DNA from: Pedosphaera parvula Ellin514
GTDB lineage: Bacteria > Verrucomicrobiota > Verrucomicrobiia > Limisphaerales > Pedosphaeraceae
DNA: 64,000 bases
NCBI RefSeq assembly: GCF_000172555.1
Contig: NZ_ABOX02000017.1
Location: 1 to 64,000, forward strand
Direction: 5' to 3'
Positions 1-18,910 of the stretch are shown one piece after another; the stretch's first letter is position 1; each line of letters starts with the position of its first letter. The notes beneath the pieces were generated by a model. It searched no databases. It had not been told where the DNA came from and worked only from the letters and a program-made list of their open reading frames with translations. A program made the translations under genes and the position numbers.

Positions 1-653
1 TTGTTTTGGTTGTTAGAATTAGAACTGGAACTCGATCCAAGGCCTCGAAATCCTCAGATTTCGTCTCCCACTCCTCGCAGGAATCACCCTAAATCATATT
101 GTCGGAACCCATTTTGTCACATTAATACTCACTTTGGCAATACATATCTTGCTTTCTTTTTATATACAACCTAACTATTTTACACAAAACGCTCTAATTA
201 TTATCCAACATCATACAAACCCAACCATTCGCAAATGAGCAGGGTTCACGCATTTAATTCTCCAACTCTGGCTTTTACGCGATCATGCATCGAAAAATCG
301 TAAATAAATCGGCCGGTTGACCCTGAATCTGCCGCCATATTAACCGTCATCATCCTCTCCGCTCAAAAATCAAACATCGTCACTCGCAAATTCCTCCCTT
401 TCCGCAGCCCTCCGGAGCCCCAAGGGGGCGTCCCAAACCAGCCCTGGGTGGAACCTGGTGGAACCCAGGGTAACCGTTCCTCAATACATTCACATTCTGC
501 CGACATAGTCGGCGCGAGCCCCGCGAGCATCATCCCTCCTGCACGTCACCATTCATTACCATTTCAGAAATCGAAGAAAATACTGCATCTACTCTGGGCC
601 AATGAGCCGATAGCCTTGCCCACAAGAGAAAACTCTGATATCGCCTTACATAC
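1..653. other. Long non-coding stretch at the left edge
   Basis: No convincing gene is visible. A frame is open from base 1 to a stop near 171 on the plus strand and could be the tail of a gene off the left edge, but its translation is not recognisable. Bases 121-310 are AT-rich. A hairpin lies at 442-470 (arms CCCTGGGT and ACCCAGGG) and its loop region repeats the motif GGTGGAACC. The region leads into the TIR remnant at 654. Confidence 0.5.
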
Positions 654-821
654 ATGGAAACCCTGGGTGCAACGGAGCATAAATTCGACGTCTTCCTGTC
701 TCACAGCAGCAAGGATAAACCGACAGTCCACCCACTTTTGCTTAATCGCTACGCCAGTTTTGTTATAAGAGTTTGGTTCGATGTAGAAGAATCGCTTGGC
801 TCACTCCCCGCCATCTGGTAG
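654..821 (+). pseudogene. Truncated TIR-domain remnant
   Basis: An ATG at 654 opens a 55-codon frame that ends in TAG at 819-821. Its product carries two of the hallmark stretches of bacterial TIR domains: KFDVFLSHSSKDKP (strand A and the box-1 loop) at residues 10-23, and a VWFDVEESLGSLPAI segment at residues 40-54, which resembles the usual 'VWFD-E---GDSIPAKI'. The rest of the roughly 130-residue TIR fold, including the region of the catalytic glutamate of NADase TIRs, is missing, so it is probably a decayed or truncated gene. The SEFIR-STAND gene starts 35 bp further on, and its upstream in-frame extension merely reads this DNA in another frame. A short expressed peptide cannot be excluded. 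The TIR assignment is from the visible motifs only. Confidence 0.6.
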
Positions 822-856
822 TCCATAACGCGAACCATCCCAAGGACTCAAAGGGA

Positions 857-3775
857 ATGACCATTAAAGCCTTTATCAGCTACAGTCACGATTCTCCCGC
901 ACACTGCCAGCGAGTGTTGGCACTCAGCACAGCACTGCGAAGAGACCACGGCATCGATGTGGAACTCGATCAATACCACAATGAGGAAATTGTGGATTGG
1001 CCTCGCTGGTGCAAAGAGCAAATGAGTCCCGAGCGTTCGGACTATGTCCTCTGTGTCTGTACTGCCGAGTATTATCGCCGCATCGAAGGTCATGAACGTC
1101 CTGAAAAAGGCAAAGGCGTTTATTGGGAAGGCAGTCTGATGGATGACGAGCTTTACGATGCCAAAGGCAACAGACGGTTTATTCCAGTCTTTTTTGATGA
1201 CGAACCGGACTCAAGTGTTCCTAAAATTCTTCGCGGTTGGACACATTGCCGCCTCCGCAACTTTGCGCTGGAAGACTCCGGATTTGAGCATTTGTTTCGA
1301 ATCATTACCCGCCAGCCAAGCGTTCCAAAACCACCGCTTGGCACTGTCCCTGTTCTACCACCCAAGCCTCCAGCTCAACCTCAACCCATCCCCCAGACCG
1401 CAGCACCAATTCAAATCTTTCCTACTCATCTCCGCCATGGTGCCGAGGAATTATTCGGCCGTGATGAGGAACTGAAACGTTTAGATGACACTTGGAACAA
1501 TCCAAAAATCAACGTGGCCACTTTCGTCGCATTCGGCGGAGTGGGAAAAACCTCGCTTATCTTTGAATGGATGAACCGGCTCATTTCCGATGCCGGTCGC
1601 GGAGCAAAGCGTATTTTCGATTGGTCATTTTACAGCCAGGGAACACGAGAACAAGGTGTCTCCGGCGACGTATTCATTGCCAAGGCACTCGAAGCTTTTG
1701 GCGATCCCGAGATGGCTAGAAGCAACGCCTCACCTTGGGACAAAGGTGCACGACTCGCACACTTGGTAGCCCAGGAAAGAACTCTCTTGGTGCTCGACGG
1801 CTTGGAACCATTGCAATATCCGCCCGGCCCAATGGGCGGCAAGTTAAAAGACCCGGCAGTGGAGATGTTGCTCAAAGGACTGGCTCGAAATAGCCCCGGC
1901 CTCTGCATCGTCACCACTCGCGAAACAGTCACCGACCTGCTTCCCTTTCGAAGCACAACGGCCCCAGAATGGAAACTGGAACATCTCTCCAAGGATGCTG
2001 GTGACGCGTTATTGGAAAAGCTCGGCGTAAAAGGAACCACTGCGGAACGCCAACAACTCAGCTGCGATGTCAACGGCCACGCTCTTACCCTGAATATATT
2101 AGGCAACTACCTAGTGCGTGCGCACGGAGGTGACATTCGCAGACGCGCCCAGGTCAGGTTTGAGAAAGCAGATGCCAACATCCAAAACGGCCACGCTTTC
2201 AAAGCCATGGCCGCCTACGAAACATGGCTTTCGTCCGGTGGCGAAGTCGGCTTGCGCCAACTCGCAGTACTTCGTGCACTCAGTCTCTTCGACCGCCCAG
2301 CAGAAAATAGACTTTTGGAAGTGCTTCGCCAAAGGCCTGGCATTGCGCACTTGACCAAACCGCTAATCGATCTTGATGAAGAAGATTGGAATCTTACCCT
2401 TTCCTCACTCAAGGATGCTGGCCTAGTTTTTATTCAAAGCGACAAATCAACAGTCGATACCCACCCGTTAATTCGCGAATACTTCGCCGCAACAATTCGA
2501 CAAAAGAATCTTGTGGGTTGGCGTGCTGCCCATCGGCTACTTTACGTGCATCTTCGCGACACAACGGAAGATAAATCGCAACCATCCGTGGAGGATCTTC
2601 AACCTCTCTATCAAGCTGTCGTTCACGGTTGCCAAGCAGGACAGGCCCGTGCAGCATGTGATGAGGTTTATGCGGCTCGGATCGCGAGAGGACGTGATCA
2701 CTATAGCATGATGAAACTCGGAACAATTGGAGCTGATTTAGCAGTGGTCTCTTATTTTTTCGATAAGCTGTGGAGTCAACCTGCAGGAGATTTCACCGAA
2801 GTAGCCCAAGCTTGGTTGTACAGTCAGGCTTCTTTTCAACTTAGGGCATTGGGCCGTCTCACTGAAGCTCTTGATCCGATGCGCGCCGGCTTACAGATGC
2901 GAATAAAACAAGAGGATTGGGTGAACGCAGCGAGATGTGCCATTAACGTTAGCGAACTCGAGATGTGTTTCGGCGACATAATGGGTGCAATGAGAGATTC
3001 TAAGCAATCCGTCAACTTTGCGAATCGTAGTAAAAATTCATTTCAAATAATCCGTTCATCCACTTCATGGGCCAACGCCGTTCATCAATCTGGCAACCAA
3101 GCAACCGCCCTAACGCTCTTCAAAGAGGCCGAAGACATGCAAGCGAAGCGCCAACCTAAGTATCCACTCTTGTATTCGTTATCCAGTTTCGAATACTGCG
3201 ATCTACTCCACGTTGATGCTGAAAGAGTTGCTTGGAAAATTATCACCAATGGGACACAAAAAACCACGCTCCAGCTAATTGGACGTTGCCGCGAGGTTGA
3301 GGAGAGAAGCCAAAGGATACTTACTTGGCGCGCCCCCAACGACTCACTTCTCGACATCGCTCTCGACCATCTCACTTTCGGGCGTGCCTCACTCTATCGT
3401 GCGGCTCTCGAGAATTCAGCAACTAGCAAACTGGAATCGGGATTTATCGTGCCTCACCAACACCTTTCCACTGCTGTTGACTGCCTCCGTCGTGCTGGCC
3501 AGCAACATCACCTTCCAAGCGGCCTTCTGTCCCGCTCCCTTCTGCGCTTTCTTGAAAATGATGCCGAAGGCGCGCGCGCCGATTTAGAAGAAGCCTGGGA
3601 AATCGCCGAACGCGGCCCCATGCGCCTCCACATGGCAGACATCCACCTCCATCGCGCCCGCCTCTTCCGTGACAAAACCTCTCTGATCGAAGCCCGCAAA
3701 CTCATCGAACAATGCGGCTATTGGCGTCGCAAAGAAGAGTTGGAAGACGCCGAAGAAGCCGCGAAGAACTGGTAA
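857..3775 (+). CDS. SEFIR-domain STAND NTPase (NLR-like, putative defence protein)
   Basis: A 972-residue protein with three parts. Residues 1-145 form a SEFIR/TIR-like domain (FISYSHDSPAHCQRV near the start, then VELDQYHNEE and VYWEGSLM). A proline-rich linker follows at about 160-190. Residues about 200-500 form a STAND/NB-ARC-type NTPase with a FGRDEEL entry motif, Walker A GGVGKTS at 227 and Walker B LLVLDG near 310. The last 450 residues are helical and resemble TPR arrays. In this family the NTPase and repeat parts sense a trigger and the SEFIR domain is the effector; single-gene SEFIR systems are known anti-phage defences. ATG 857 was chosen because AAGGA lies 10 nt upstream and the domain begins at once; a longer frame from 773 adds residues that overlap the TIR remnant. 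No partner gene is visible. The defence role is inferred. Confidence 0.85.
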   Translation: MTIKAFISYSHDSPAHCQRVLALSTALRRDHGIDVELDQYHNEEIVDWPRWCKEQMSPERSDYVLCVCTAEYYRRIEGHERPEKGKGVYWEGSLMDDELYDAKGNRRFIPVFFDDEPDSSVPKILRGWTHCRLRNFALEDSGFEHLFRIITRQPSVPKPPLGTVPVLPPKPPAQPQPIPQTAAPIQIFPTHLRHGAEELFGRDEELKRLDDTWNNPKINVATFVAFGGVGKTSLIFEWMNRLISDAGRGAKRIFDWSFYSQGTREQGVSGDVFIAKALEAFGDPEMARSNASPWDKGARLAHLVAQERTLLVLDGLEPLQYPPGPMGGKLKDPAVEMLLKGLARNSPGLCIVTTRETVTDLLPFRSTTAPEWKLEHLSKDAGDALLEKLGVKGTTAERQQLSCDVNGHALTLNILGNYLVRAHGGDIRRRAQVRFEKADANIQNGHAFKAMAAYETWLSSGGEVGLRQLAVLRALSLFDRPAENRLLEVLRQRPGIAHLTKPLIDLDEEDWNLTLSSLKDAGLVFIQSDKSTVDTHPLIREYFAATIRQKNLVGWRAAHRLLYVHLRDTTEDKSQPSVEDLQPLYQAVVHGCQAGQARAACDEVYAARIARGRDHYSMMKLGTIGADLAVVSYFFDKLWSQPAGDFTEVAQAWLYSQASFQLRALGRLTEALDPMRAGLQMRIKQEDWVNAARCAINVSELEMCFGDIMGAMRDSKQSVNFANRSKNSFQIIRSSTSWANAVHQSGNQATALTLFKEAEDMQAKRQPKYPLLYSLSSFEYCDLLHVDAERVAWKIITNGTQKTTLQLIGRCREVEERSQRILTWRAPNDSLLDIALDHLTFGRASLYRAALENSATSKLESGFIVPHQHLSTAVDCLRRAGQQHHLPSGLLSRSLLRFLENDAEGARADLEEAWEIAERGPMRLHMADIHLHRARLFRDKTSLIEARKLIEQCGYWRRKEELEDAEEAAKNW

Positions 3776-3966
3776 CGACACTACCACCTGGACTCCGCAA
3801 CAATCCCGGATTCGGCCACACCATGATCTCTTTCGAACACGGCACTAACTACACAAGTCGAAAAACCGCATAGCGCCTGTTGATCTGCGAAAGACCTCCA
3901 TTACTAAAACAACCCACGATGGGAATCACGCGACAAATCCAATCCAACCAGAAAATACCCGACGTT

Positions 3967-4009
3967 CTCCCCCTCTCCCCTTGCAATGGGAGAGGGCCGG
4001 GGTGAGGGA
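3967..4009. repeat. Dispersed intergenic repeat of the CCCTCACCCC...CCCTCTCCC type
   Basis: The block runs from a CCCCCTCTCCCC arm to GGGAGAGGGCCGGGG followed by GTGAGGG, so it can fold on itself. Read on the minus strand it encodes the string PHPGPLPLQGERG, a familiar false-peptide signature of a promiscuous intergenic repeat found in many bacterial genomes. Function unknown. Confidence 0.6.
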
Positions 4010-4082
4010 AAATGCGCCCAAACTTTCCATCGCTTTGGGAACCCCGATTACTCGACAAACGCAAACTCGACGTATCGTTCCC

Positions 4083-4114
4083 CATCTGCGTTCATCGGCG
4101 TCCATCTGCGGTCA
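4083..4114 (+). repeat. Copy 1 of the 'TCCATCYGYGGTTA' dispersed repeat
   Basis: Contains internally repeated CATCTGCG / CATCGGCG / CATCTGCGG units. It is similar to the blocks at 8441, 10249 and 12323, always in the same orientation. Confidence 0.6.
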
Positions 4115-4216
4115 CGCCTCCAATTTCGAGCTTGGCTCTTATCCGTAGACGGCAATCAGAAATTGCCAGGCGTTTGTGGTTACCTCATAATAACACCATC
4201 GAGAGGAAACAAAATT

Positions 4217-4663
4217 ATGGGAACAAACACTATCCGACTTCACCGAGTGCTCCGTGCGACTCCAGAGCGAATCTATCGGGCATTCTTGGATGCCGACGCA
4301 TTGGCTAAATGGCTTCCACCTAACGGATTCACCTGCAAGGTTCACCACTTGGAAGCCAAGGTCGGTGGCTCCCACAAAATGTCGTTCACAAATTTTACCA
4401 CCGGACACGGCCACTCCTTTGGCGGAACATATCTTGAACTGGTACCGCACGAACGCATTCGCTACTCGGACAAATTCGACGACGCGAACTTGCCAGGGGA
4501 AATGCAGGTGACAATCACCCTCAAAAAGGTATCCGTCGGGACTGAGCTGAACATCGTTCAAGACGGTGTGCCCGATGTCATTCCCCCTGAGGCTTGCTAC
4601 CTCGGGTGGCAGGAATCACTCATCCTGCTTGCAAAACTTGTCGAGGCTGAGATTCCAGATTAG
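4217..4663 (+). CDS. SRPBCC (AHSA1-like) domain protein
   Basis: A 148-residue protein that is one START/SRPBCC fold of the AHSA1 (activator of Hsp90 ATPase homologue) type. The N-terminus RVLRATPERIYRAFLDADAL and the following KWLPPNGF are typical of the first strand, helix and W-P loop of this family, and the C-terminal helix (GWQESLILLAKLVE) closes the ligand cavity. Such proteins bind hydrophobic ligands in the cytoplasm; the ligand here is unknown. ATG 4217 is preceded by GAGAGGA about 10 nt upstream, which decides the start against the much longer open frame from 3986, whose first part is repeat DNA. It stands alone and the flanking genes give no functional hint. Confidence 0.85.
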   Translation: MGTNTIRLHRVLRATPERIYRAFLDADALAKWLPPNGFTCKVHHLEAKVGGSHKMSFTNFTTGHGHSFGGTYLELVPHERIRYSDKFDDANLPGEMQVTITLKKVSVGTELNIVQDGVPDVIPPEACYLGWQESLILLAKLVEAEIPD

Positions 4664-4873
4664 CGCGAAGTAGGACGAAAGGAATTCGGCTTGTTGTGTA
4701 GAATCAAAAGGTCGTAGGCTGAAGGCGAGGGCGAAGCCCGAATCCACTGAACCACCTATGAACTTCGCGAAGCGAAAAGAATCCACATCTCCCAACCCTC
4801 GCGCTCCAGCCACAGTCCACGCATTCCGTGGCCAGAATCCACTGAGCTTGACTCGTTCGACAAATAGGCCGCT

Positions 4874-5500
4874 ATGATGTCACCGAGTTTATTAAGGATA
4901 GCCAAGCTCAGAACTAAGGACCTCTTAGCCCTCCTGATTTTTGGGTGCTTCCTGTGCCTTCTCGGACTGGCAGTCCTCTCAGTAATGCCGCCAAAAGGCG
5001 CTTATTTGATCGAGCAAATGGACAGCGGTATTGGAGTATTTGTTACGGGAGCATCATTGTTGTTGTCGCTACTAGGTCTCGGATTTCTGAAGTCAAAGCA
5101 GGCCGCTCATTCAGATCGGTTCGTAATCTTCTCCGGGTTCGTCGTCTCGCTTGTACCAGCAGCGTGCATACTCTGGACTTTTTTAAGTGCATGGTTTGCC
5201 CCGCTCCCTTACCACGTTTACGCAAGCGACGCAAAGCGCATCGCCGCAGGCATGACTAAGGCACAGGTTGTCCAGAAGATTGGATCGCCTAGAGGTTCGT
5301 CGGTGGGTGAGCACAAGATGCGGCTTACCTATGATTTGCAGATCGCGTGGGGAAGCTCCGGTCGGCAGTTCTTTGTGGATTTCATCGACGACAAGGTCGT
5401 CTCTGCGAAAATTGTGCGTTATGGGGGAGAAGTGGATGATGATTTTTTTGTAAGTGATGCTGTTAAAGATTTGATAAAAGGAAAGGCGCTGAACAGATGA
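4874..5500 (+). CDS. Three-TM membrane protein with a SmpA/BamE-like tail
   Basis: A 208-residue protein with predicted membrane segments at about 17-37, 53-72 and 83-108, followed by a soluble tail of about 100 residues. The tail begins with RIAAGMTKAQVVQKIGSPRG, which resembles the 'GMT..QV...G.P' turn of small SmpA/OmlA (BamE-like) folds, and continues as beta strands (RLTYDL, QFFVDFIDDKVVSAKIV). A membrane-anchored sensor or scaffold is possible, but the function is unknown. The start is one of two consecutive ATG codons; no clear Shine-Dalgarno is visible. The gap before it (4664-4873) holds no gene but two GAATCCACTGA repeats and short palindromes. Confidence 0.65.
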   Translation: MMSPSLLRIAKLRTKDLLALLIFGCFLCLLGLAVLSVMPPKGAYLIEQMDSGIGVFVTGASLLLSLLGLGFLKSKQAAHSDRFVIFSGFVVSLVPAACILWTFLSAWFAPLPYHVYASDAKRIAAGMTKAQVVQKIGSPRGSSVGEHKMRLTYDLQIAWGSSGRQFFVDFIDDKVVSAKIVRYGGEVDDDFFVSDAVKDLIKGKALNR

Positions 5501-5749
5501 AGCCGCTTCCAAATCGACAGTTGAAGCACTCAAAGTCGAACAAGTCGGGTGCACCGATCCTTATCCGCTAGTCACCGTAGCACCGTCACTCTGAACATGA
5601 ACTTTCCAGCTTCAGTTTCTCTCCCCACCCGCACGCGGCATCAATCGCACCTATGCCTAACCATGCTCATCCCGCAACGGGTTCCAATTGGCACGAATGC
5701 ACTTCCGCCCAACAACCACAAATGTAAGTCACCCCTAAACAAAATTCCC

Positions 5750-6625
5750 ATGCGCCAATCAGTATTCAGAATTATTCTAACGGTGACATTTACTATGCTT
5801 ATTTTCACCGCTGCCCTCGCTGAACCAATCACGAACCGAATCACCGTCACAGTACGTGGAACCGGCCCGGACATCGTGCTGATTCCCGGCCTCGCCTCCT
5901 CCAACGCCGTCTGGGACGCCATCGCCAAACACCTCGAAGGACGTTACCGCCTCCACATCATTCAAGTCGCAGGCTTCGCCGGTGCCCCTCCGAATGCGAA
6001 CGCCCAAGGACCTGTCGTCCAGCCAACTGTCGATGCCATCAACACCTATATCAAAACCAACCAACTGACCGCCCCAAAAGTGATCAGTCATTCGCTCGGC
6101 GGATTGATGGCCTTAATGCTCGCCTCCCAACGTCCTGAAGACGCCAGCAAACTCTTGATTGTAGACTCACTTCCCTTCTTCAGCGTGTTGAACGGTGTCA
6201 ACAATGTTGAGGACGCCAAGCCCCGTGCTGCTGCCATGCGCGACACCATCCTGGCCCAAACTCAAAAAGACTACGCGCAAAGCCAAACCAATGTACTGCG
6301 CTTCATGGTCAAGTCGCCGGAGGGTCTCAAGACCACTGCCGCCTGGGCTGTCGCTTCCGACAAATCCGTCGTGGCTCGCGCCTTATACGAACTCATGACC
6401 ATCGACATGCGCCCCCAATTGCCTCAAATAAAGATCCCCGTAACCATTCTCTACCCTTGGGATTCCTCAACTGGCTTTCCACAAGCCATGGTGGACAACC
6501 TCTATCAAAAAAGCTTCGCCTCCCTCCCCAACAAAAAACTGATCCGCATCGACAACTCCCTACACTTCATCATGCTCGACCAACCCGACCAGTTTCTAAA
6601 ACAAGTGGACGCATTCCTGAAGTAA
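5750..6625 (+). CDS. Exported alpha/beta-fold hydrolase
   Basis: A 291-residue protein with a signal peptide (residues 1-24, ending in TAALAEP) and a compact alpha/beta-hydrolase domain. Visible catalytic elements are the oxyanion stretch LIPGLASS (44-51), the nucleophile elbow SHSLGG with Ser115, a candidate acid in YPWDSS, and the catalytic histidine in NSLHFIMLD near the C-terminus. It therefore probably acts on an ester- or amide-type substrate in the periplasm or outside; the substrate cannot be deduced. The frame is open from 5549, but the signal peptide begins at ATG 5750, so the shorter start is chosen. Confidence 0.85.
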   Translation: MRQSVFRIILTVTFTMLIFTAALAEPITNRITVTVRGTGPDIVLIPGLASSNAVWDAIAKHLEGRYRLHIIQVAGFAGAPPNANAQGPVVQPTVDAINTYIKTNQLTAPKVISHSLGGLMALMLASQRPEDASKLLIVDSLPFFSVLNGVNNVEDAKPRAAAMRDTILAQTQKDYAQSQTNVLRFMVKSPEGLKTTAAWAVASDKSVVARALYELMTIDMRPQLPQIKIPVTILYPWDSSTGFPQAMVDNLYQKSFASLPNKKLIRIDNSLHFIMLDQPDQFLKQVDAFLK

Positions 6626-7081
6626 TGTTGTCGTGATTTTTTCCTAACCAGAATGTCATCAGAACCAGGAACCAACCCGCGACGTTGAACACGGTCAGGT
6701 TCATGGAAAGATGCATGCCTCCTTGTCCTGTTCCCCTCTTTGCCTGCAAAACCAACCATGCTCTCGAAACACTCCGCCGAGACTCAGGAACAAACTGCGA
6801 TCTCCGAAGGTCCAGCGGACCGCAATGTTTATAGTTCCCGATCAAAAAATAAATCCGCTTCGGCCCGTGACTCCAAACAACTCAACGCATGCAATCGAAG
6901 CGGCACCGCCCGCACAATCTACATTTTCCTTATTTTGCCGACCGCCTTGCCGTCGCTGAACCGCGGGCAAATGTCCCTTGGAAATATTTCCGGCTACCCG
7001 CCACGCAATCTTGCAAACCGTCACCAGTCTCCTCAGAAAGCATGAACAATCAATCACCGCTGAAAACTGAAAACTTACCGC
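6626..7081. other. Gap between convergent genes
   Basis: No convincing gene is present; the short frames here have no recognisable product. It contains a small palindrome (GGTCC AGC GGACC, around 6810-6825) and, at its right end beside the stop of the pseudopilin gene, a TGAAAACTGAAAACT tandem repeat (7061-7075). Confidence 0.5.
7061..7075. repeat. TGAAAACTGAAAACT short tandem repeat
   Basis: Two copies of an 8-bp unit (second one short by a base) just beyond the 3' end of the pseudopilin gene. Another of the short repeat types that sit at gene borders in this window. Confidence 0.4.
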
Positions 7082-7876
7082 TCAGTTCGTCCACAACGAA
7101 CAGCCACGATTAACATCACCTGTCCATCCCAATCCACCCCTGCTATCAGGATCACACCACAATAATGTTGGCGGGGATCCTGCCGTGTCGTTTTTAACCT
7201 CTTCCTGCTGGTACGTCTCAAATTTGATGAATTGCGACCGCCCATCATAACCAAGCACAATACAGCCTTTAACATGTCGGCGACTCGGCCCATTCGACTG
7301 GTCGGGTTGATTGGCACCATCGTTATACACACCCGCATCCTCGTCGTTGGGCTCCCACATCATATACGAAGCAGGCGCCATGGAACCCATTTTATGAACC
7401 GTCGGAAGCGGTGGGGTTTTATGATATCCCATGCTCGCCCCATTCATCACATAGGTGGACAACTTGTCGAGACGCGCAGCAAAAGTTGTGGTATTGGTCT
7501 TTTCAGTCGGACAGCGATAAACCCGCCAGTTCTTCCCCACATAGGCCCAAAGTAAACCGCCCTGATAAGCATTTTCCGGCGGATTCGAAAGCGCAGGTGG
7601 GTTTCCTCCCACGGGGGCATAGAGCCAGCCGGCATTCAGGCCGCCCCAGTTTGGAAACACAGCGAAATCATTATTATCCAGGGAATACATGTGGGCGGCC
7701 AGGCCAATTTGCTTTTGTTGACTCAAGCATTGGGTGCGCAAAGCCGCCATTTTGGCATTGCTCAACGCCGGCAATAAAAGGCCGGCCAGAATGGCAATGA
7801 TTGCAATAACGACCAGGAGTTCAATCAAGGTAAAACCTGTGCGGTGGGTATGGAGCTTCTGCTTCTGCTTTTTCAT
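7082..7876 (-). CDS. H-X9-DG type pseudopilin-like exported protein
   Basis: A 264-residue protein with a type IV prepilin leader: basic N-terminus, cleavage/methylation site G14|FTLIE with Glu at +5, then a hydrophobic helix ([19 protein letters not shown]). The C-terminal part contains [13 protein letters not shown], that is His, nine residues, Asp-Gly, the H-X9-DG signature of a large family in Planctomycetes, Verrucomicrobia and Lentisphaerae. Such proteins are processed by prepilin peptidase and sit in the inner membrane or in pseudopilus-like assemblies. No other secretion or pilus gene is nearby, so it is an orphan, as is common for this family. No Shine-Dalgarno is visible before ATG 7876. 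Confidence 0.9.
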
Positions 7877-8483
7877 AACATGGCTATCAATGTGTTGCTA
7901 TACGACTCCACGGCACATGACACTACATGCTGGGGCGTAGCCAGTATCTGGGGTTCATGGCTATAAAGATGGATGTGTTAGTACTTCGGGTCAATAAAAA
8001 TTACCGTTCTTAATCTTACAAAAGTTGATTAAAATGCCTCAGTTTCCGAACTGTGGTTTTATTTCTTAAGCACAGTGTCAAGATGCGCCCGATGTCGAAT
8101 TGACTCATCCCGTTACCTCCGCTGGCATCATCGACCAACTTGGATTTCGCATCGGCCAGATGAGGTCTGCATTCTTTGGAGCGCGGCAGGATGATGCGGA
8201 CAGGAAGGAAGTCTCACTCAAGAGGCAAATTGCAACGCATCCAATGTTGGCAAAAAAATTCGGGCAAATCACAAAATTTTATCTTTTCTTCTCGACGTTA
8301 AATTTGGATCTCCCGTGGACGGGTTGATTACGAGAACACTATTAATTTAAATCTCCATAATGTCAATAGATTTAGTTATGTTATTTTACGTAGCTGTGGA
8401 TTAACTGTTTACATCACCGACATTCGTTGACTTCCCTCCTTATCCGCGTCCATCCGCATCCATCTGCGGTTACCTCCTCTTAA
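7877..8483. other. Long intergenic region
   Basis: About 600 bp with no convincing gene; a 75-codon frame starting with TTG at 8100 has no recognisable product. The left part must hold the pseudopilin promoter (minus strand). The right end holds copy 2 of the 'TCCATCYGYGGTTA' repeat, directly behind the stop of the glycosidase gene. Bases 8320-8400 are AT-rich. Confidence 0.5.
8441..8474 (+). repeat. Copy 2 of the 'TCCATCYGYGGTTA' dispersed repeat
   Basis: Reads TATCCGCG TCCATCCGCA TCCATCTGCG GTTACC in blocks, with a ten-base periodicity. It lies nine bases beyond the stop codon of the minus-strand glycosidase gene. Confidence 0.65.
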
Positions 8484-10211
8484 TCATCTCAACCTAAAAA
8501 ACTGCCTCCCCAAGGCCGCGTTATTCGTATACGGACTAACCGCCCCCGACACATCCACAAACGGGCCCGCAACATCCGACGCCGATTGCAGCGTATAAGT
8601 CCCACTCCACGAAATCACCAACTTGTCCCCTGCTTGCGTTGCAATCATCGTCGGCCGCACAAACGTCCAAACCACCTTGTTCACCGCATCCCACGTCATA
8701 TAGCCCCGCGAGAAATCCTGCCTCGTACCACTGCCCGAAGTGAACTCGTTGTTCAACCAATAACCATAATTCACCGCCCCATTGTTCGTCTTAAAAAAAC
8801 TCCACAACCCATGCTGATCATTCAGCTCAATCGTCCCATTTGTCGACGTCATCAACGTTGCTGTCTTATGCGAACCTCCATCGAAGTCCTGTGCGTAGCC
8901 ATTAAAGAAACCGTAAACATACGCCCCATGCCCATTATCGAATGGATTCCCCAACGCAGCCTGGCCATGGCTGTAGTAATAGCTCTGGATATTTTGATTC
9001 GTTGTCCCGTTGGAATTAATCCCTTCAAACTGCTCAGAGTGCTGATAATCCACATACGACAGCTTCGGACTCCCCGAAGAATCCTTCACCCCGTAATAAA
9101 TATTCCCCGCCGGATTGTCCTGCCAATAAAACCAGATCGCCATTTTCACGTAAGGAATCACCTTGATCGCGCTGAACGTGGAAATCAAATTCGTCTCCTG
9201 GATTTCCTGCGAAACACCGCTCGTATGGATGCTGTTGGTGGTCTGCCAGCCCACTTCGGTAATGAACGTCTTTTTCAGGGTGCTGGCTCCTTCATATTTG
9301 GTATAAGCCTGCCGCACCCAATCCACATATTGCCTAAACTCCAGCGACGATGCCACCCCGCCCTGATCGATATAGACATGCTCACCAACCCCATCCAACG
9401 GATACACATTGTAATTGGATTTGGCATAAGCAAAAGCTCCACCCTTCGTCGTGTTCGTCCCGGTACTATAGGTATCGTCCACGTATTGCGCCCCGGCATT
9501 GCCGTAGCTGTAAATTCCGCCAATGCTATGACCAAACACCCCGCCCGAAAATAAAGTCACATCATTGATCTGATGCGTGATATGCACCGACTCCCAGCTC
9601 CTTGCCAGCAACCAACCATAATTCGACGGATAAAGATACGTGCCGCCCACGCCAACACTCGTCGTCCAGGCATTCGGCTCATTCCACAACTCGTAATATT
9701 TCACGCGATCCCGAAAATGCAGCACGATCGGCACCACCGCATTCGTGGCATAACCTTCCACGTAAATATTATCGCCATTTGAACCCGGATTCTTCTCCGA
9801 ACTGTTCGCCTCCCAATCCGTCTGACTTCCCGGCCACGAGCCTCCATCAATCAACAACAACACCTGCAACCCCGCATTCCGCGCATTGTTCACCGCGTTA
9901 TCATAATAACCCAGCATCGCCGCATCCCAATTCGTGTGCCCCGGTATCAACCGCATCTCGATCCGTATCCACCCCGTCTCCCCCTGCACCATCTTCGACG
10001 CCACACCCGCCGTCAGCAAAGCAGTCCCAGTATTATCAATCGCCCACCCATTATCCGTCCCATATGGCCCCGCCCCCTTCACCGCAGAAGAAAACAGAAC
10101 TGCTACCATGCAAATGAATACACAGATTTCTCGCGCAATATGTGACCGAATTTTCAAGCAGGCTTGGTGAATCAAATTGTACCCGCGTGCCACAAATGCA
10201 CAAGGAACCAT
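8484..10211 (-). CDS. Exported clan GH-A glycoside hydrolase with C-terminal module
   Basis: A 575-residue protein. A hydrophobic export signal (about residues 28-46, ending SSAVKGAG) precedes a TIM-barrel glycosidase. The acid/base glutamate is visible in YYELWNEPN (Glu178) and the nucleophile in TFITEVGWQ (Glu319), the arrangement of clan GH-A (GH5/GH39-like); the exact family and substrate cannot be set by eye. The last 60 residues (YTLQSASDVAGPFVDV ... RQFFRLR) form the C-terminal module shared with three other exported proteins in this window. The N-terminus before the signal is unusually long. A TTG at residue 19, or another internal start, would give a cleaner signal peptide, so the start is uncertain. 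Confidence 0.8.
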   Translation of the reverse strand: MVPCAFVARGYNLIHQACLKIRSHIAREICVFICMVAVLFSSAVKGAGPYGTDNGWAIDNTGTALLTAGVASKMVQGETGWIRIEMRLIPGHTNWDAAMLGYYDNAVNNARNAGLQVLLLIDGGSWPGSQTDWEANSSEKNPGSNGDNIYVEGYATNAVVPIVLHFRDRVKYYELWNEPNAWTTSVGVGGTYLYPSNYGWLLARSWESVHITHQINDVTLFSGGVFGHSIGGIYSYGNAGAQYVDDTYSTGTNTTKGGAFAYAKSNYNVYPLDGVGEHVYIDQGGVASSLEFRQYVDWVRQAYTKYEGASTLKKTFITEVGWQTTNSIHTSGVSQEIQETNLISTFSAIKVIPYVKMAIWFYWQDNPAGNIYYGVKDSSGSPKLSYVDYQHSEQFEGINSNGTTNQNIQSYYYSHGQAALGNPFDNGHGAYVYGFFNGYAQDFDGGSHKTATLMTSTNGTIELNDQHGLWSFFKTNNGAVNYGYWLNNEFTSGSGTRQDFSRGYMTWDAVNKVVWTFVRPTMIATQAGDKLVISWSGTYTLQSASDVAGPFVDVSGAVSPYTNNAALGRQFFRLR

Positions 10212-10248
10212 CTGTTTTGTGTTTAATCAGTGACTAAAACGCTCCTTT

Positions 10249-10280
10249 ATTCGTGTGCCTTCGTGTCCATCCGTGGTTAA
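10249..10280 (+). repeat. Copy 3 of the 'TCCATCYGYGGTTA' dispersed repeat
   Basis: Reads ATTCGTGTGCC TTCGTGTCC ATCCGTGGTTAA in blocks. Same orientation as the other copies; here it lies between divergently transcribed genes. Confidence 0.65.
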
Positions 10281-10331
10281 GTTGTTAAAACCATTGCAAA
10301 CACAGGGTTTCTTGAAGGGATGGACGGCCAC

Positions 10332-10350
10332 TGTCAGCGAAACTGTCAGT
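10332..10350 (+). repeat. Left pair of 12-bp-spaced TGTCAGY motifs
   Basis: TGTCAGC at 10332 and TGTCAGT at 10344, spaced 12 bp with GAAAC in between. Matches the triple array at 12190-12220 on the other side of the beta-lactamase-like gene, in the same orientation. Confidence 0.55.
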
Positions 10351-10441
10351 CATGGGGCGGATGGTAAAAAAATTCGCCAAAACTGGCTGGAACTTGCTGA
10401 GACTTCGCCACCACTGGCGTTCAAAAGCGCCGTGGATAGCC

Positions 10442-10490
10442 GGGGCGCTTCTTCAAATTCATTGAGGGATCGCCTCTTTTTATTCTTTTA
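10442..10490 (+). terminator. Hairpin plus T-tract facing into the beta-lactamase-like gene
   Basis: GGCGCTTCTTC pairs with GAGGGATCGCC (one mismatch, some G-T pairs) around an AAATTCATT loop, followed by TCTTTTTATTCTTTT. On the plus strand this looks like an intrinsic terminator or attenuator 38 nt before the start codon. Its core (10455-10474) is a perfect 20-bp inverted match to 12072-12091. Confidence 0.5.
10455..10474 (+). repeat. Left arm of a 20-bp perfect inverted repeat
   Basis: Identical to the reverse complement of 12072-12091, with weaker similarity extending about 14 bp outward (both arms read CGGGGCG) and about 35 bp inward (T-tract, then ACTCGRCATTATT). The two arms bracket the beta-lactamase-like gene. 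Confidence 0.8.
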
Positions 10491-10527
10491 CTCGACATTA
10501 TTCGAACGCTATGCTTTCCAGTAACAC

Positions 10528-12087
10528 ATGCAACGAGGGAAGAACGCCTGGCATTTAGTCGGTTTGAAATGGATCGCCGCTCTCGTCTCAGCTTTGGTCG
10601 TCGGCATCTCATCATCTGGTCGGGCCGATTCAAGCGATCGGTTTGCCGCAGCACTGAACGCACAGATGCCTGAGTTGTTAGAGAAATACCGCGTGCCAGG
10701 AGCCGTGATATCTTGCATCAGAAACGGCGACGTGGTTTGGACGAAGGCATTCGGGCGTGCTAATCTTTCGACGGACGGGCTTATGCGACCAGACTTGGTA
10801 TTCAATCACGGTTCCAACGGAAAGGTTCTGACGGCATGGGGCATCATGCGTCTTGTTGAAGAAGGAAAAGTGGATCTGGATGCGCCGGCAAACCGTTATT
10901 TAAAACGCTGGCAGCTTCGTTCATCACAGTTCGACCCCAACGCCGTGACCATTCGCCGCCTGCTCAGCCACACCGCCGGCCTCACGGTCCACGGTTTCAT
11001 GGATTACAACCAGCGCCGTCGATTGCCCAACTTGGTAGAAATGCTGGAAGGCAGGAATCAGGTTCCCATGTTCAACGGTGAAGTGAACGGCGCTGTCCTC
11101 ATCAAATGGCAGCCCGGGTCGCGGGGGGAGTATTCCGGCGGCGGATTTGTGATTCTGCAAATGATCATTGAAGACGTCTCGGGTGAGTCATTCGCGTCCT
11201 TCATGCACCGCGAAGTGACCGCGCCGCTGAAGCTCGATACCCTGCAGTGGACATGGACGCCGGAGCTTGAAGTCGCTGCGCCGATGCCCTATGGAGAATT
11301 GCAGGAACCGGTCGGTTATCGACAACTCGCTTGTCAGTCGATCGGCAGTGAGGTTTGCAGTGTTGCCGATTTTGCCCGCTTCCTCGCGGCCGCCGTGCCG
11401 AGTGCCCACGCAGAACCTGTGGGACGCGGAGTTCTAACGCCGGAAAGCGTGGCGCAAATGCTGGAGATCCAAACCAATTCGGATGGTTCGGGTCTCGGTT
11501 ATGGTGTGGCGTGGATCGATGGACACAAGATACTCGGGCATTCGGGAGCCAATCCAGGCTGGAACGCTCAATTCCTCCTCGACGCCACCCAGCGGGAGGG
11601 TTTTGTCATCGCCAACAATTCGGCGCTCGGCGGGCCGTTCAATGGCGCCGTGAATGCCCTTTGGTGGCGGACGATGAGGAGCCAAACCGTGACCGATCCT
11701 CCGCCTGCAAGTGGCTTCACGATTGGGCTGAACCGGTTAGTGCTAAGAATCACTCTGGTCTTCGGAACGATTCTAACCGTCATCACCGGCAGGCGGGTAT
11801 ATCAGGTCGCGTGCGGCAAGTTGCGTTGGAGCCGGCGTCCTTCCAAGCGATGGCTGCTGGTCACTTCCTTTTTTGCTGTGGTGACGTTGATTTGGTGGTA
11901 TTTGTTCTATGCGCCGCCGTCTCTGCCATTGCCCATCAGTCCGGCAATTCCGGACATCTGGGTGTTGCCTTTGGTTAATTACTTTGCGGAGGCGCTATTG
12001 GGCTGCGTTGGCATTAGTCTTTTCTTTGCGTTTCTTCGTGGAAATAATGCCGAGTTGAAAGATGAAAAAAGGGCGATCCCTCAATGA
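10528..12087 (+). CDS. Membrane-tethered beta-lactamase-fold serine hydrolase
   Basis: A 519-residue protein of the class C beta-lactamase/penicillin-binding (Pfam Beta-lactamase) family. An N-terminal hydrophobic signal (about 14-33) is followed by the hydrolase domain with SNGK (Ser96-Lys99, the S-x-x-K nucleophile motif), YSG (Tyr202, in place of Y-x-N) and HSG (His338, in place of K-T-G). About 130 residues follow with three predicted membrane segments (about 398-420, 440-462 and 475-505). This layout fits ESTHER/PBP4*-type peptidases or esterases acting on the envelope; resistance to antibiotics cannot be claimed. The gene is bracketed by inverted hairpin repeats and TGTCAGT arrays, and its stop codon lies inside the right repeat. 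No clear Shine-Dalgarno before ATG 10528; a TTG at codon 13 is an alternative. Confidence 0.8.
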   Translation: MQRGKNAWHLVGLKWIAALVSALVVGISSSGRADSSDRFAAALNAQMPELLEKYRVPGAVISCIRNGDVVWTKAFGRANLSTDGLMRPDLVFNHGSNGKVLTAWGIMRLVEEGKVDLDAPANRYLKRWQLRSSQFDPNAVTIRRLLSHTAGLTVHGFMDYNQRRRLPNLVEMLEGRNQVPMFNGEVNGAVLIKWQPGSRGEYSGGGFVILQMIIEDVSGESFASFMHREVTAPLKLDTLQWTWTPELEVAAPMPYGELQEPVGYRQLACQSIGSEVCSVADFARFLAAAVPSAHAEPVGRGVLTPESVAQMLEIQTNSDGSGLGYGVAWIDGHKILGHSGANPGWNAQFLLDATQREGFVIANNSALGGPFNGAVNALWWRTMRSQTVTDPPPASGFTIGLNRLVLRITLVFGTILTVITGRRVYQVACGKLRWSRRPSKRWLLVTSFFAVVTLIWWYLFYAPPSLPLPISPAIPDIWVLPLVNYFAEALLGCVGISLFFAFLRGNNAELKDEKRAIPQ

Positions 12088-12105
12088 ATTTAGGGAACCG
12101 CCCCG
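12060..12105 (-). terminator. Hairpin with T-tract overlapping the 3' end of the beta-lactamase-like gene
   Basis: Read on the minus strand, GGGCGGTTCCCT can pair with AGGGATCGCCC around a loop of about ten bases, followed by CTTTTTTC. It could end leftward transcription from the Asp-box protein gene, and it contains the right arm (12072-12091) of the 20-bp inverted repeat. It overlaps the last 28 bases of the plus-strand gene. Confidence 0.5.
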
Positions 12106-12189
12106 TGCACTCGGCATAATCACCAGCTAGCAAAAACAACCATTATACGATCTTTAAAGTAGTTTTTTTTTATACTATTAACATGCACC

Positions 12190-12220
12190 TGTCAGTAAAA
12201 GTGTCAGTAAAAGTGTCAGT
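12190..12220 (+). repeat. Three tandem TGTCAGT motifs at 12-bp spacing
   Basis: TGTCAGT at 12190, 12202 and 12214, joined by AAAAG, making a 12-bp direct repeat. The same motif pair occurs upstream at 10332-10350. Confidence 0.7.
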
Positions 12221-12322
12221 GAAAGCAGTCAAAAGTTGCCGAAAATAGTGACGAGTTAGGGCGAATTTGCATCGATTTATCAATGGTTTTCGCTATTTTA
12301 TTGCAGTTCTGATTTGGATATA

Positions 12323-12346
12323 CAGACCGTGTCCATTAGTGGTTAC
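12323..12346 (+). repeat. Copy 4 of the 'TCCATCYGYGGTTA' dispersed repeat
   Basis: A short degenerate copy (CAGACCGTGTCC ATTAGTGGTTAC) 17 bp beyond the stop codon of the minus-strand Asp-box gene. Confidence 0.5.
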
Positions 12347-12363
12347 TTCCCTATTACCCCGCC

Positions 12364-14850
12364 CTACAACCCCTGACTCCGATAGAACCTCCGCCCGAAC
12401 CCTCCCGCATTCGTGTCACTGAACTGCACCGCCCCATTCACTCCCACGTTGTTCGTCCCAATTGAAGTCCAGTTCGTCATGTTCGTTGACGCCCAAACCG
12501 CATACGCCGCTCCCGGCGTCCCCTGTTGCAAAACCAAACTCACACTCCCATTCAGCTTCAAACTCGAAGCATCCACTTTCAAAGTCCCAGGCAACGAACT
12601 CCCGGCCGAAACCGTGCTTGCTACCTTGATCCCATTTCCAAAACTCGTCACCCACATCTCCGAAAGCTTGTAAGGATTGAAGAAAATCCTCTCCGGCTGC
12701 CGGAATGGATAGCTCGTCACCTGGAAGAACGAAGGACTTCCCGCTGTAATATTGGTCGAACCCCAAAGCCCCTGCGTCTCCGTCGTCAAATAAAGCTCAT
12801 TCGCATTCAGCGGATTGATTGTGCATGACGTCACCCGATCCAAACTGTTCAACCGCGTCCAGCTCACCCCGCGATTCGTCGTCCGATACAATCCGCCCAG
12901 CCCATTCGGTGCCCCACCCCAGCCGCTGAACACCCCCACATACCACGTGTTCTGCGTCGCATCATTCGGATCAATCACCAAATCCTTCGTCCAATAACTC
13001 ATGTTGGTATGGCTGCGATCAATCCACGACGTCCCGGCATTGGTGCTGACAAACACACCCGAACTCGCGGTAAACGCCGTCGTCGTCCTGCGTCCTGAGT
13101 AAGTGCAAACCAAAATGCCATCGTTCAGCACATGCATATTAAATGGATGCCCCTCCGTCCGTGGCGGATTAGCCAGTTTGCTCCACGTCGATGCTGCCCC
13201 GTTCTGAATATTGCTCGAAACATAAATCCCACCGGCGGTGCTATGAATCACACTCGCATAAAGGCGGTTCGCATTATTCGGGTCCGTCGCCACCCAGATC
13301 ACCGGATGCCCAGCATTGTACAACGTCTGCCACGTCACACCTTGATTGCTGGAGAACAGAACCAACCCCGCCCCGCCATCAATGGTCGCGTCGGTCAGAT
13401 GCGTGCTTTGATACATATCATGAATTGACGACGTCCCTGCATACAACACGCCCGTTACCGGATGCTTCACGCACCGGTACATCGAATTCTGATTGTGCCC
13501 CGTATATCCAAAACCCCACGTATTCCCTCCATCCGCACTGATGATCCCTTTAATATCCGAATATCCAGCGACGATATGATTGCTATCCGACCACGTCACT
13601 CCCCAGCACGAAGTATTCTCCAGTCCAATGCTGTGATAAAACTTTCCCTTCGGCGTCACCGCATTCGTTGCGTTCTGGTCCGCCACATTCACATAAACCT
13701 GCTTCCAAAACGCACCGCCATTCGTGCTCACATGCGCGAAGCCCAAATCTGTATAAGCCACCTTGCTCGAATCATTCGGCGCCACTGCCAATCCCAACGC
13801 TCCCGCCCCATACGACCAATCCCTGTCCCCACTCGCTCCCGCCCAACCGGTAAACACATTCAGATTATTCGTAATCAATAACGAGTTTTGCCAGTTCGTC
13901 CCGCCATTGATCGTCTTGTAAAGTATCGGATAATCAATCGTGCTCTGCTGCCCCGCCACGTAAGCCGTCGAAATATCATTCTGCGCCATCGCCACAAATG
14001 CCGGATTATAGCCCGCCGGAATACCACTATTCCTCAATGTCCAGTTCCCCTGTCCCCAATCCAACGAATACGTCCCTGCATAACTAGTATACGAACTCTC
14101 AACGTACAATCCTGGAAAAACATCCGCCGAACTCCAAATCACACAAAAGAACCTTTTCGCTGTGCCCTGCTTCGCCCCGGCAAACGAAACCATCACCTGC
14201 CCTGCTGGAATGCCTCCCACACTCGACAGGGCAAAAGTATTTCCATTGTCCGTCGATACCAACAACCCCGCACTCGTCCCCACATAAATATTCGTTCCAT
14301 CGAAGAAAGCTCCCGCCACATACAATCCCGCCGCCGCACTGTATTTCGATGCAAAGCTCGATCCCCCATTGGTCGACCAATACAAATTGCTATAATCCGA
14401 AACAATAATCCTATTCGTCGAACCAGAGTCCGCAAACAATGCATACGCTCCTCCCCCCGTAGGATCGCCAGCGAGCTGGTGCCACGTCGCACCACCATCC
14501 ACACTCTTCGTCGGTGTTATCAGGTCGCCTGAGTAATCAACGCAATAAATTACCTTGGGATCACTCGTAAATTGCATGATCGCATTCCGACCTCCTTGTA
14601 TCTGCCCAAAATCGCTCGTGATCCAACCCGCCCCAAAATTGGTCGAACGAAACACCTCGCTCATATCACAAGCCACATAAAGCTCGCCCGCGTTGAACGG
14701 ATTGAAGCTCGGCGCAAACAATGCGCCTCCCCCTCCCGCACCCTTTGGACCCCATTGAGTCGGCTGCGCCGCCTGTCCTCGCGACAAAAGAAGAATTGCT
14801 AATACACATTCAAACGCCGCTAAGGAACGTAAACATCTTTTCATGGCCAT
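12364..14850 (-). CDS. Exported Asp-box (BNR/VPS10-like) beta-propeller protein
   Basis: An 828-residue exported protein. The signal peptide (RSLAAFECVLAILLLSRGQA) is followed by long beta-propeller arrays with many Asp-box-like turns, for example SVDGGATW, STDNGNTF, SADGGNTW and TTNRGVSW, as in sialidases, VPS10/sortilin and GH74 xyloglucanases. The C-terminus (YAVWASTNMTNWTSIG ... RRFYRSQGL) is the module shared with other exported proteins here. It may bind or cut extracellular polysaccharide; no catalytic pair can be picked with confidence. The frame extends to 14901. ATG 14850 is preferred because it sits directly before a standard signal peptide and has AGAGG about 15 nt upstream; ATG 14844 is an alternative. 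Confidence 0.75.
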   Translation of the reverse strand: MAMKRCLRSLAAFECVLAILLLSRGQAAQPTQWGPKGAGGGGALFAPSFNPFNAGELYVACDMSEVFRSTNFGAGWITSDFGQIQGGRNAIMQFTSDPKVIYCVDYSGDLITPTKSVDGGATWHQLAGDPTGGGAYALFADSGSTNRIIVSDYSNLYWSTNGGSSFASKYSAAAGLYVAGAFFDGTNIYVGTSAGLLVSTDNGNTFALSSVGGIPAGQVMVSFAGAKQGTAKRFFCVIWSSADVFPGLYVESSYTSYAGTYSLDWGQGNWTLRNSGIPAGYNPAFVAMAQNDISTAYVAGQQSTIDYPILYKTINGGTNWQNSLLITNNLNVFTGWAGASGDRDWSYGAGALGLAVAPNDSSKVAYTDLGFAHVSTNGGAFWKQVYVNVADQNATNAVTPKGKFYHSIGLENTSCWGVTWSDSNHIVAGYSDIKGIISADGGNTWGFGYTGHNQNSMYRCVKHPVTGVLYAGTSSIHDMYQSTHLTDATIDGGAGLVLFSSNQGVTWQTLYNAGHPVIWVATDPNNANRLYASVIHSTAGGIYVSSNIQNGAASTWSKLANPPRTEGHPFNMHVLNDGILVCTYSGRRTTTAFTASSGVFVSTNAGTSWIDRSHTNMSYWTKDLVIDPNDATQNTWYVGVFSGWGGAPNGLGGLYRTTNRGVSWTRLNSLDRVTSCTINPLNANELYLTTETQGLWGSTNITAGSPSFFQVTSYPFRQPERIFFNPYKLSEMWVTSFGNGIKVASTVSAGSSLPGTLKVDASSLKLNGSVSLVLQQGTPGAAYAVWASTNMTNWTSIGTNNVGVNGAVQFSDTNAGGFGRRFYRSQGL

Positions 14851-14956
14851 GCAAAAATCCGGTCGCCTCTTGCAATCTGCAATCGACACGACACGTCCCA
14901 AAAAATGAGCAATTAAAAGGCCAAACCCTCCGATGTAAGGGGAAAATCCCGACCGT

Positions 14957-17365: not shown

Positions 17366-17484
17366 TTCAATCAGGCCATAAAAGCTCCACAGACTTCTCC
17401 CGCTTTAGATGGTCTGAAAGGTATAACTTGGTTCCTGCCGCTCGTCACTAAAATTGCGGCCTCACAAATTCTGCCTGAGGAATC

Positions 17485-18498
17485 TCATCCCGCCCCGGTG
17501 TTCCCTTTGCGAATAGTATATTCGGGATAGAGTCGCTCACGACAATCCGGACAGATCCCATGGGTAAATTCAGCCTGGGTATGCTTGGAAATATAAGTCT
17601 CCACCCTTTCCCAATACCCACGATCATCGCGAATCATCTTGCATGATGCACAAATCGGCAAAAGTCCTTTCAAGGTCTTGATATTCGTCAGCGCTTCTTT
17701 CAACTCCTCAATCAACCTCAACCGCTCCTTCTCCTCCCGCTTCCGCCGGGTAATGTCCCGCTCTATCGCCGAAACCCCAACCACCTCCCCTTTTCCGTTC
17801 TTGATGGCTGAAAGCGTCAGTGAAACATCGATTATGGCCCCATCCTTTCGCAGCCGTTGGGTTTGATAACGATCGATGTGCTCCCCATTTTTGATTCGCT
17901 GATAAAATTCCTTTAATTCTTCCGGGCGCTCCGGCGGAATCAACCGGGAGACCGAATGTCCCTTTACCTCATCCGCTGTATAGCCATAAATATGCTCGGC
18001 ACCTGTATTCCAACTGGTGATGATTCCTTCAAGAGTTTTCCCGATGATCGCATCTTCTGACGACTCCACGATGGCGGCCATATACGCCAGCATCTCCTCG
18101 GCTTTATGCCGTTCCTTGCGGTTTAACGCTTCACGGACTTCACGCTCAATGGCCGGCACCAGGCGAAAAAGCTTGTGTTTCAACACATAATCCTGCGCCC
18201 CCGCTTTCATCGCTTCAACCGCTGTCTCCTCCCCAATGGCTCCCGAAACAATGATCAGCGGAATATCCAGTCCCTTCTCCGAAATTAATCGCAACGCTTC
18301 AATGCTGCCAAAGCCCGGAATGACATGGTCACAAAGAACCACATCCCATTCCTGCAGGCTCAGCGCTGACCTCATCTCCACCACATTGTCAACGCGGTGA
18401 AATTGTGGCTCGAACCCTCCTCGTCTGAGCTCGAAAACCAATAACAGGGTATCGTCTTCGGAATCCTCAACGATCAATGCCCTCAACGGCTTTTTCAT
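17485..18498 (-). CDS. Response-regulator receiver plus PAS protein with C-terminal Cys motif
   Basis: A 337-residue cytoplasmic protein. Residues 1-125 form a CheY-like receiver (VEDSEDD, phospho-acceptor region VVLCDHVIPG, KHKLF). Residues about 135-260 form a PAS/PAC sensor domain (IVESSEDAIIGKTLEGIITSWN ... ERDITRRK). A short coiled segment and about 60 residues with four cysteines follow: PICASCKMIRDDRGYW and HGICPDCRERLYPEY. This CxxC...CxxC end occurs in many REC/PAS proteins and could bind a metal, but its role is not established. There is no kinase, GGDEF or DNA-binding domain, so the output is unclear. No partner kinase is adjacent. Confidence 0.85.
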   Translation of the reverse strand: MKKPLRALIVEDSEDDTLLLVFELRRGGFEPQFHRVDNVVEMRSALSLQEWDVVLCDHVIPGFGSIEALRLISEKGLDIPLIIVSGAIGEETAVEAMKAGAQDYVLKHKLFRLVPAIEREVREALNRKERHKAEEMLAYMAAIVESSEDAIIGKTLEGIITSWNTGAEHIYGYTADEVKGHSVSRLIPPERPEELKEFYQRIKNGEHIDRYQTQRLRKDGAIIDVSLTLSAIKNGKGEVVGVSAIERDITRRKREEKERLRLIEELKEALTNIKTLKGLLPICASCKMIRDDRGYWERVETYISKHTQAEFTHGICPDCRERLYPEYTIRKGNTGAG

Positions 18499-18730
18499 AC
18501 GTCTTTATTCAGACAAACAATGGTAATTGTTCAATGGGCAGAATACCCTAGTCTCAATGGTCTCAAATGACAAAAAATTGTTGTCCTACAAACCGCTCGT
18601 TCAAGCCAAGCTTAATCCGGGCCATTGTTCCGGCTTCAATTTCAAAAAAATTAATCCGCCGACAAACCCGAACAATTGTTATATTTGACCAGTTGTCAGA
18701 AGTTTAATTCATTACTTAAAAAGAAAATCG

Positions 18731-18910
18731 ATGCAAATATCCGAGTCCATTCAGTGTCCATTTTGTGGGCAGACTTTCGACCTCGTCATCGATACGAGCA
18801 TCCCATCGCAACAATTCACCACGGATTGCGAAGTCTGCTGTCGGCCATTTGAAGTGGTCGTGGAATGTGAACCCGGCGAAATTCTAAGCTTGGATGTGCT
18901 GGGGAATTAA
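18731..18910 (+). CDS. CPXCG-motif cysteine-rich mini-protein
   Basis: A 59-residue protein too short to attract notice in most gene scans. It contains CPFCG at residues 9-13 and a second pair, CEVC, at residues 33-36, followed by an acidic C-terminus. This matches the small 'CPXCG motif-containing cysteine-rich protein' family, a probable zinc ribbon of unknown function. It starts at ATG 18731 and ends with TAA; the TMEM14-like gene begins 21 nt later on the same strand, so the two may be co-transcribed. Confidence 0.85.
   Translation: MQISESIQCPFCGQTFDLVIDTSIPSQQFTTDCEVCCRPFEVVVECEPGEILSLDVLGN

What the first reader, a model, noticed from the sequence alone, without database searches (positions are those of the whole stretch)
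654..821. TIR-domain remnant directly upstream of a SEFIR-STAND gene
The first 55 codons read as a TIR domain opening (DVFLSHSSKDKP, VWFDVEE) and then stop. Two different effector families of the same TIR-like clan lie within 35 bp. Either an older TIR gene was replaced by a SEFIR gene at this locus (effector exchange in a defence hot spot), or the short TIR-like peptide is still made.
Basis: partly seen in the sequence, partly recalled or inferred. Interest (0 to 1): 0.6.

Follow-up and report, generated by a model that had tools for sequence, protein, structure and literature searches.

The report
Decayed TIR gene fragment beside SEFIR gene
The short reading frame is the broken-off front end of a dead immune-type (TIR) gene that lies in front of an intact bacterial SEFIR gene of the defence type; leftovers of this kind turned up repeatedly in related genomes, so it is ordinary.

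Summary
ORF 654-821 (55 aa) carries the first part of a TIR domain, with homology from about 669 to about 782, and a SEFIR-STAND gene starts at 857. Pfam TIR_2 alone is below its cut-off (E 0.074); PADLOC, TIR genes of the same order and an in-house profile (34.7 bits; best of 2000 shuffles 6.6) support it.

It is best read as a pseudogene remnant. Most of the domain is missing, DNA alignments to TIR genes need length changes, and 18 of 31 assessable TIR 5' ends fetched from the order by similarity to it are also truncated or interrupted.

'Effector exchange' is only partly supported. TIR and SEFIR do swap on this STAND core in relatives, but this SEFIR is already fused to the same STAND in a same-genus genome and in planctomycetes, and the remnant is of another TIR subfamily. 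The one close relative with kilobases of upstream DNA has no TIR there. A TIR ORF lies just upstream in 2 of 21 SEFIR loci, of two different types. No defence system was recognised among 20 downstream ORFs tested, and upstream is a contig end. A working peptide is unlikely. Low interest.

The parts
654..821 (+). 55-aa ORF holding about the first quarter to third of a TIR domain; decayed TIR gene remnant (homology about 669-782)
740..769 (+). stretch inside the ORF that also fits the TIR profile in another frame, which holds a stop there: possible sign of compensated length changes
   Evidence: 213 of 20000 shuffles reach its score; for the ORF's own frame 1112 of 20000; neutral
822..856 (+). 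35-bp gap between remnant stop and SEFIR start; no TIR homology above chance
857..3775 (+). SEFIR-STAND gene, 972 aa: SEFIR (residues 4-129), AAA/NACHT-like STAND core and TPR-like part (these last below Pfam cut-off)
442..471 (.). short repeat arms; a 13-14-nt copy (660-673) covers the first codons of the remnant ORF; a two-copy match this short may be chance

Best explanation
ORF 654-821 is the 5' remnant of a dead TIR-domain gene of the kind YDVFLSHSSKDK...AERLR..GLKVWFDEW that is found in part of the genomes of this bacterial order. Its 3' part was lost, the surviving part has drifted, and an intact SEFIR-STAND gene that came or persisted as a complete unit now starts 35 bp downstream. The SEFIR-STAND protein by itself is the likely working defence gene: the STAND/TPR part senses an infection cue, oligomerises, and the SEFIR domain acts, probably by depleting NAD+. 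The homology and truncation are shown; the order of events and the defence function are inferred.
For: TIR homology of residues 7-43. In the three DNA alignments printed (L054, L058, L049), the window needs the same net length differences, most at the same places, and part of the segment also fits the profile in another frame that holds a stop. The profile match ends at column 38 of 134. 18 of 31 assessable TIR 5' ends from the order are truncated or interrupted, among them the short remnant L005. DNA homology of SEFIR-STAND falls off by eye at the stop codon against the same-genus copy, and begins at 857 against L076 and at 820 against L075. SEFIR matches bSEFIR, and SEFIR is listed as an NAD+-depletion defence (PMC12322248, passages read).
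Against: The ORF is still open for 55 codons. The frame-change evidence is moderate: 213 of 20000 shuffles for the other frame, while the ORF's own frame scores slightly higher (2.71 against 2.62) with 1112 of 20000; a frame-tolerant alignment prefers a frame change only at the cheapest penalty of three; in one of the three DNA alignments a single-base difference lies elsewhere. No genome seen here shows the intact TIR gene at this place, so the ancestor is inferred. Past 782 nothing is above chance: 783-821 p 0.09, 783-856 p 0.15 by mean score, 344 of 1000 shuffles.
Confidence: 0.86

Rival explanations
1. Effector exchange at the locus (a more specific history, not exclusive of the best explanation): a TIR gene stood here and a SEFIR-STAND gene replaced its 3' part, keeping the TIR gene's promoter and start region as a leader.
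For: SEFIR, TIR and other N-termini interleave on a tree of the same STAND core. A second TIR ORF directly upstream of a SEFIR gene exists in G043:C55. Displacement of effector domains between close relatives is described for other conflict systems (PMC7159879, passages read).
Against: The SEFIR and STAND of this gene are already joined in G007 and in planctomycetes. The remnant TIR subfamily is not the one found on this STAND core. Only 2 of 21 SEFIR loci have an upstream TIR ORF by two in-house profiles, of different subfamilies. No promoter-like site was found. No dedicated search for a TIR gene tail downstream was run.
Confidence: 0.25
2. The 55-aa TIR-like peptide is still made and acts, for example as a leader peptide or as a partner or decoy for the SEFIR-STAND protein.
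For: The ORF is open, ends 35 bp before the SEFIR start on the same strand, and keeps the DVFLSHSSKDK motif.
Against: Most of the domain is missing, including the region where the catalytic Glu of TIR NADases is expected (position recalled). Signs of internal scrambling. No ribosome-binding site seen by eye. Among 21 SEFIR loci only one other has a TIR ORF just upstream, a longer one of another subfamily.
Confidence: 0.04
3. Chance resemblance; the ORF is not derived from a TIR gene.
For: Pfam TIR_2 match is below its cut-off.
Against: with shuffle control.
Confidence: 0.02

Closest known systems
TIR_2-type TIR genes of the same order (e.g. the G007:C282 ORF of TIR followed by WD-like repeats as read by eye; the G043:C37 ORF, TIR_2 E 1.1e-27)
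   Same: motif order and about 50% identity over residues 6-44
   Different: those are full domains in longer ORFs; here the match stops at column 38 of 134
L005 (G002:C524), a 65-aa TIR ORF in a same-family genome
   Same: short decayed TIR 5' end
   Different: keeps parts on both sides of an internal deletion; no SEFIR in the 3-kb locus by eye
bSEFIR (PADLOC PDLC03957)
   Same: SEFIR domain of the downstream gene, E 5e-47
   Different: the match covers only model positions 39-197 of 412; the C-terminal part here is a STAND/TPR region

Membership tests
TIR domain (Pfam TIR_2) | score above Pfam gathering cut-off | tested here: not met
   14 bits against cut-off 28
TIR domain (Pfam TIR_2) | N-terminal strand/loop motif (DVFLSHSSKDK) in register | tested here: met
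TIR domain (Pfam TIR_2) | complete domain with catalytic region | tested here: not met
   match ends at column 38 of 134; the catalytic Glu position itself is recalled
TIR pseudogene | truncated relative to intact homologues | tested here: met
TIR pseudogene | frame-disturbing changes within the remaining part | tested here: inconclusive
   moderate support, neutral
bSEFIR defence protein | SEFIR domain above cut-off | tested here: met
   Pfam 41.1 bits, cut-off 23; PADLOC E 5e-47
bSEFIR defence protein | anti-phage activity by NAD+ depletion | not testable with these tools
   needs experiment
Conserved TIR-SEFIR gene pair | TIR gene just upstream of SEFIR in related loci | tested here: not met
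   2 of 21 SEFIR loci, window included, with different TIR subfamilies

The most novel reading that the evidence does not exclude
A truncated TIR peptide has been kept as a translated leader or decoy that tunes or restrains a SEFIR-STAND immune protein.
Probability: 0.04. Interest if true: 0.6.

Novelty: new member of a known kind. Interest (0 to 1): 0.15.

Why it matters
Taken alone it matters little: a dead TIR fragment beside a gene of the defence type. Together with the relatives it suggests that TIR genes in this order are often broken, some by palindromic repeats, while SEFIR, TIR and other N-termini move between STAND cores. That would fit fast gain and loss of bacterial immune genes.

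Tried and rejected
Tried with no or little result: extension of homology past 782 (not above chance); promoter and terminator scan of 300-1000 (none); Rfam on 1-5000 (none); viral contigs with the SEFIR part of the protein (no relative); plasmids with the peptide (6 records, best E 0.4). DNA of 500-900 in 97 relatives gave, beside the window itself, 18 short matches: 16 to the stretch from 500 to about 555, one at 827-866 in G096 that is not a TIR gene, and one at 681-718 in G081 that lies in a 656-aa TIR-bearing ORF (profile E 3.7e-15; both looked at). That match is confined to the AHSA1-like gene (4204-4665); the flanks in G004 share nothing with window 1-9000 and hold no TIR, so no empty site could be compared. 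Considered and rejected: a conserved TIR-SEFIR two-gene system (2 of 21); a recent join of SEFIR to this STAND.

Limits of counts. 18 of 31: 33 TIR starts that fit a motif in loci fetched by similarity to the peptide, so not an unbiased census; starts that do not fit the motif (for instance L055, also short) were not counted; two starts cut by locus or contig ends were dropped; truncated means a match that ends before column 129 of 134, and three of the 18 reach columns 112-120. 2 of 21: same-strand ORFs of at least 40 aa within at most 1500 bp upstream, two in-house TIR profiles, one of which contains the G043 ORF itself (Pfam E 9.4e-7 confirms it); several loci had less upstream DNA (191 bp in L110, 495 bp in L112). 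PADLOC was run on 20 chosen ORFs of 3986-40863, not on the whole window. Literature: search listings only, and passages of four papers. A search for Verrucomicrobi plus TIR domain plus pseudogene found 0 papers.

Full report
What is there. The ORF at 654-821 is as described: 55 codons, stop at 821, and 35 bp later the ATG of a 972-aa gene (857-3775). The window starts at the first base of contig C17 of a 7.4-Mb genome, so nothing is known upstream of base 1.

Is it TIR? Pfam TIR_2 fits residues 13-46 in the right register but below its cut-off (E 0.074, 14 of 28 bits). Two other sources do better: PADLOC PDC-S66 E 6.2e-6 and ThsB E 9.1e-5, and TIR genes of the same order (19 of 320 genomes with a match at E up to 0.001, own genome included; best foreign E 4.9e-7). 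A profile made from 12 such genes gives 34.7 bits; the best of 2000 shuffled peptides gives 6.6. The profile is partly circular because its members were found with this peptide. By solved structures the best hits are bacterial TIR NADases such as AbTIR, but weakly (E 0.081).

How far does it go? The profile match covers columns 3-38 of 134, up to base 782. Bases 783-821 and 783-856 are not more similar to TIR genes than shuffles are (p 0.09 and 0.15 by mean score; 344 of 1000 shuffles). The first codons overlap a short repeat also present at 442-471 (short enough to be chance), so the present start need not be the TIR gene's own.

Is it decayed? Local DNA alignments with 35 TIR starts of related genomes reach a score of 188; the best of 100 shuffles reaches 138. 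The three alignments printed (L054, L058, L049) need the same net length differences in the window, most at the same places; one single-base difference lies elsewhere in L049. The stretch 740-769 scores 2.62 bits in a frame other than the ORF's, in spite of a stop there; 213 of 20000 shuffles reach this. The ORF's own frame scores 2.71, with 1112 of 20000. A frame-tolerant alignment takes a frame change only at the cheapest of three penalties. So compensated frame changes are likely but not proven. The truncation itself is not in doubt.

How usual is such a fragment? Of 33 motif-fitting TIR starts in the loci, two are cut by ends. Of the other 31, 11 run through the domain (two of them with an insert of about 11 residues), 2 are diverged long ORFs that match the profile only in part, and 18 are truncated or interrupted before column 129. 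The sample was picked by similarity to the peptide and is not a census. L005, in a genome of the same family, is a very similar short remnant.

The neighbour. The gene at 857 has a SEFIR domain (Pfam 41.1 bits, PADLOC bSEFIR E 5e-47), an AAA/NACHT-like core and a TPR-like part below their cut-offs, and its SEFIR part matches solved SEFIR domains. The same-genus copy in G007 is 66% identical from residue 29 to the end, but its contig ends there. Two planctomycete relatives have SEFIR domains 71% and 63% identical. In L075 SEFIR and STAND lie in one 1005-aa ORF, with a LepA-like gene and a small ORF upstream (named by eye) and no TIR in 5 kb. L076 has about 60 bp upstream with no TIR, and its STAND core continues in a second ORF. 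Against the G007 copy DNA identity falls off by eye at the stop codon, although the aligner ran on with gaps to 4379; against L076 homology begins at 857, against L075 at 820. This fits a gene that moves as a unit (inferred). Other copies of the STAND core carry TIR (L031, L032), SEFIR (L027, L036) or N-termini without a Pfam match (labels in part by eye). These interleave on a tree of 14 cores in which 4 of 11 inner branches are well supported; the window gene pairs with the SEFIR copy of G007 (99/100).

Effector exchange? Exchange of effectors on this core is visible in relatives, and displacement of effectors is described for other conflict systems (PMC7159879, passages read). At this locus it is not shown. 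SEFIR was already fused to this STAND in its nearest relatives, and the remnant TIR is of another subfamily than the TIRs of this core. In 21 SEFIR loci from 16 of 313 genomes, only the window and G043:C55 have a TIR ORF just upstream on the same strand. The G043 case is a 199-aa ORF with TIR_2 (E 9.4e-7), and its SEFIR is fused to an AAA_35 domain. Ten ORFs of 3986-21868 are by Pfam AHSA1-like, BamE-like, hydrolase, pilin-like, beta-lactamase family, sortilin-like, peptidase S13, PAS/response regulator and HrpB-like helicase, and one without a match. PADLOC on these ten and ten more up to 40863 gives only a helicase cross-match (Cas3, E 8e-6) and a sigma-54-type regulator at 27264-28571 that matches the AAA-HTH part of RtcR models (E 2.3e-108), read here as ordinary regulation. 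The own genome holds three TIR_2-profile places: this gene, a second SEFIR gene at C92 and a TIR ORF of another subfamily at C22.

Verdict. A decayed TIR 5' end in front of an intact SEFIR-STAND gene; ordinary. A still-translated peptide is not excluded (about 4%).

Noticed in passing
L072 (G051:C62:740-829), L048 (G253:C188:3301-3326), L051, L053, L056, L064, L070: TIR genes of the order carry short, often palindromic repeat inserts, several just after VWFDEWE. The L072 and L048 insert starts with GTAG like REP repeats (PMC3733652, passages read). With one mismatch allowed its motif has 73 sites in G253, 7 in G007, 2 in G051 (both in this TIR gene) and 0 in G000 and G043; backward control 0. 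The G051 gene may have been acquired already interrupted.
   Followed up: partly
L005:1486-1683 (G002:C524): Another short TIR remnant with an internal deletion, downstream of the end of a long ORF.
   Followed up: partly
L042/L102 (G043:C55): A 199-aa TIR_2 ORF directly upstream of a SEFIR-AAA_35 gene, same strand; a second TIR-before-SEFIR arrangement with other TIR and ATPase types.
   Followed up: partly
window 500-555, about 3906-4047 and about 7752-7837: Dispersed repeats (500-555, 3906-4047) and the start of a pilin-like gene (7752-7837, inside ORF 7082-7876) that match many places in own and related genomes.
   Followed up: no
L039:709-3924 (G090:C982): The same STAND core with an N-terminus that reads like a class III nucleotide cyclase by eye; Pfam gave no match at 1e-4.
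   Followed up: no
window 4204-4665: The AHSA1-like gene is 82% identical in DNA to a copy in G004 while the flanks there are unrelated.
   Followed up: partly
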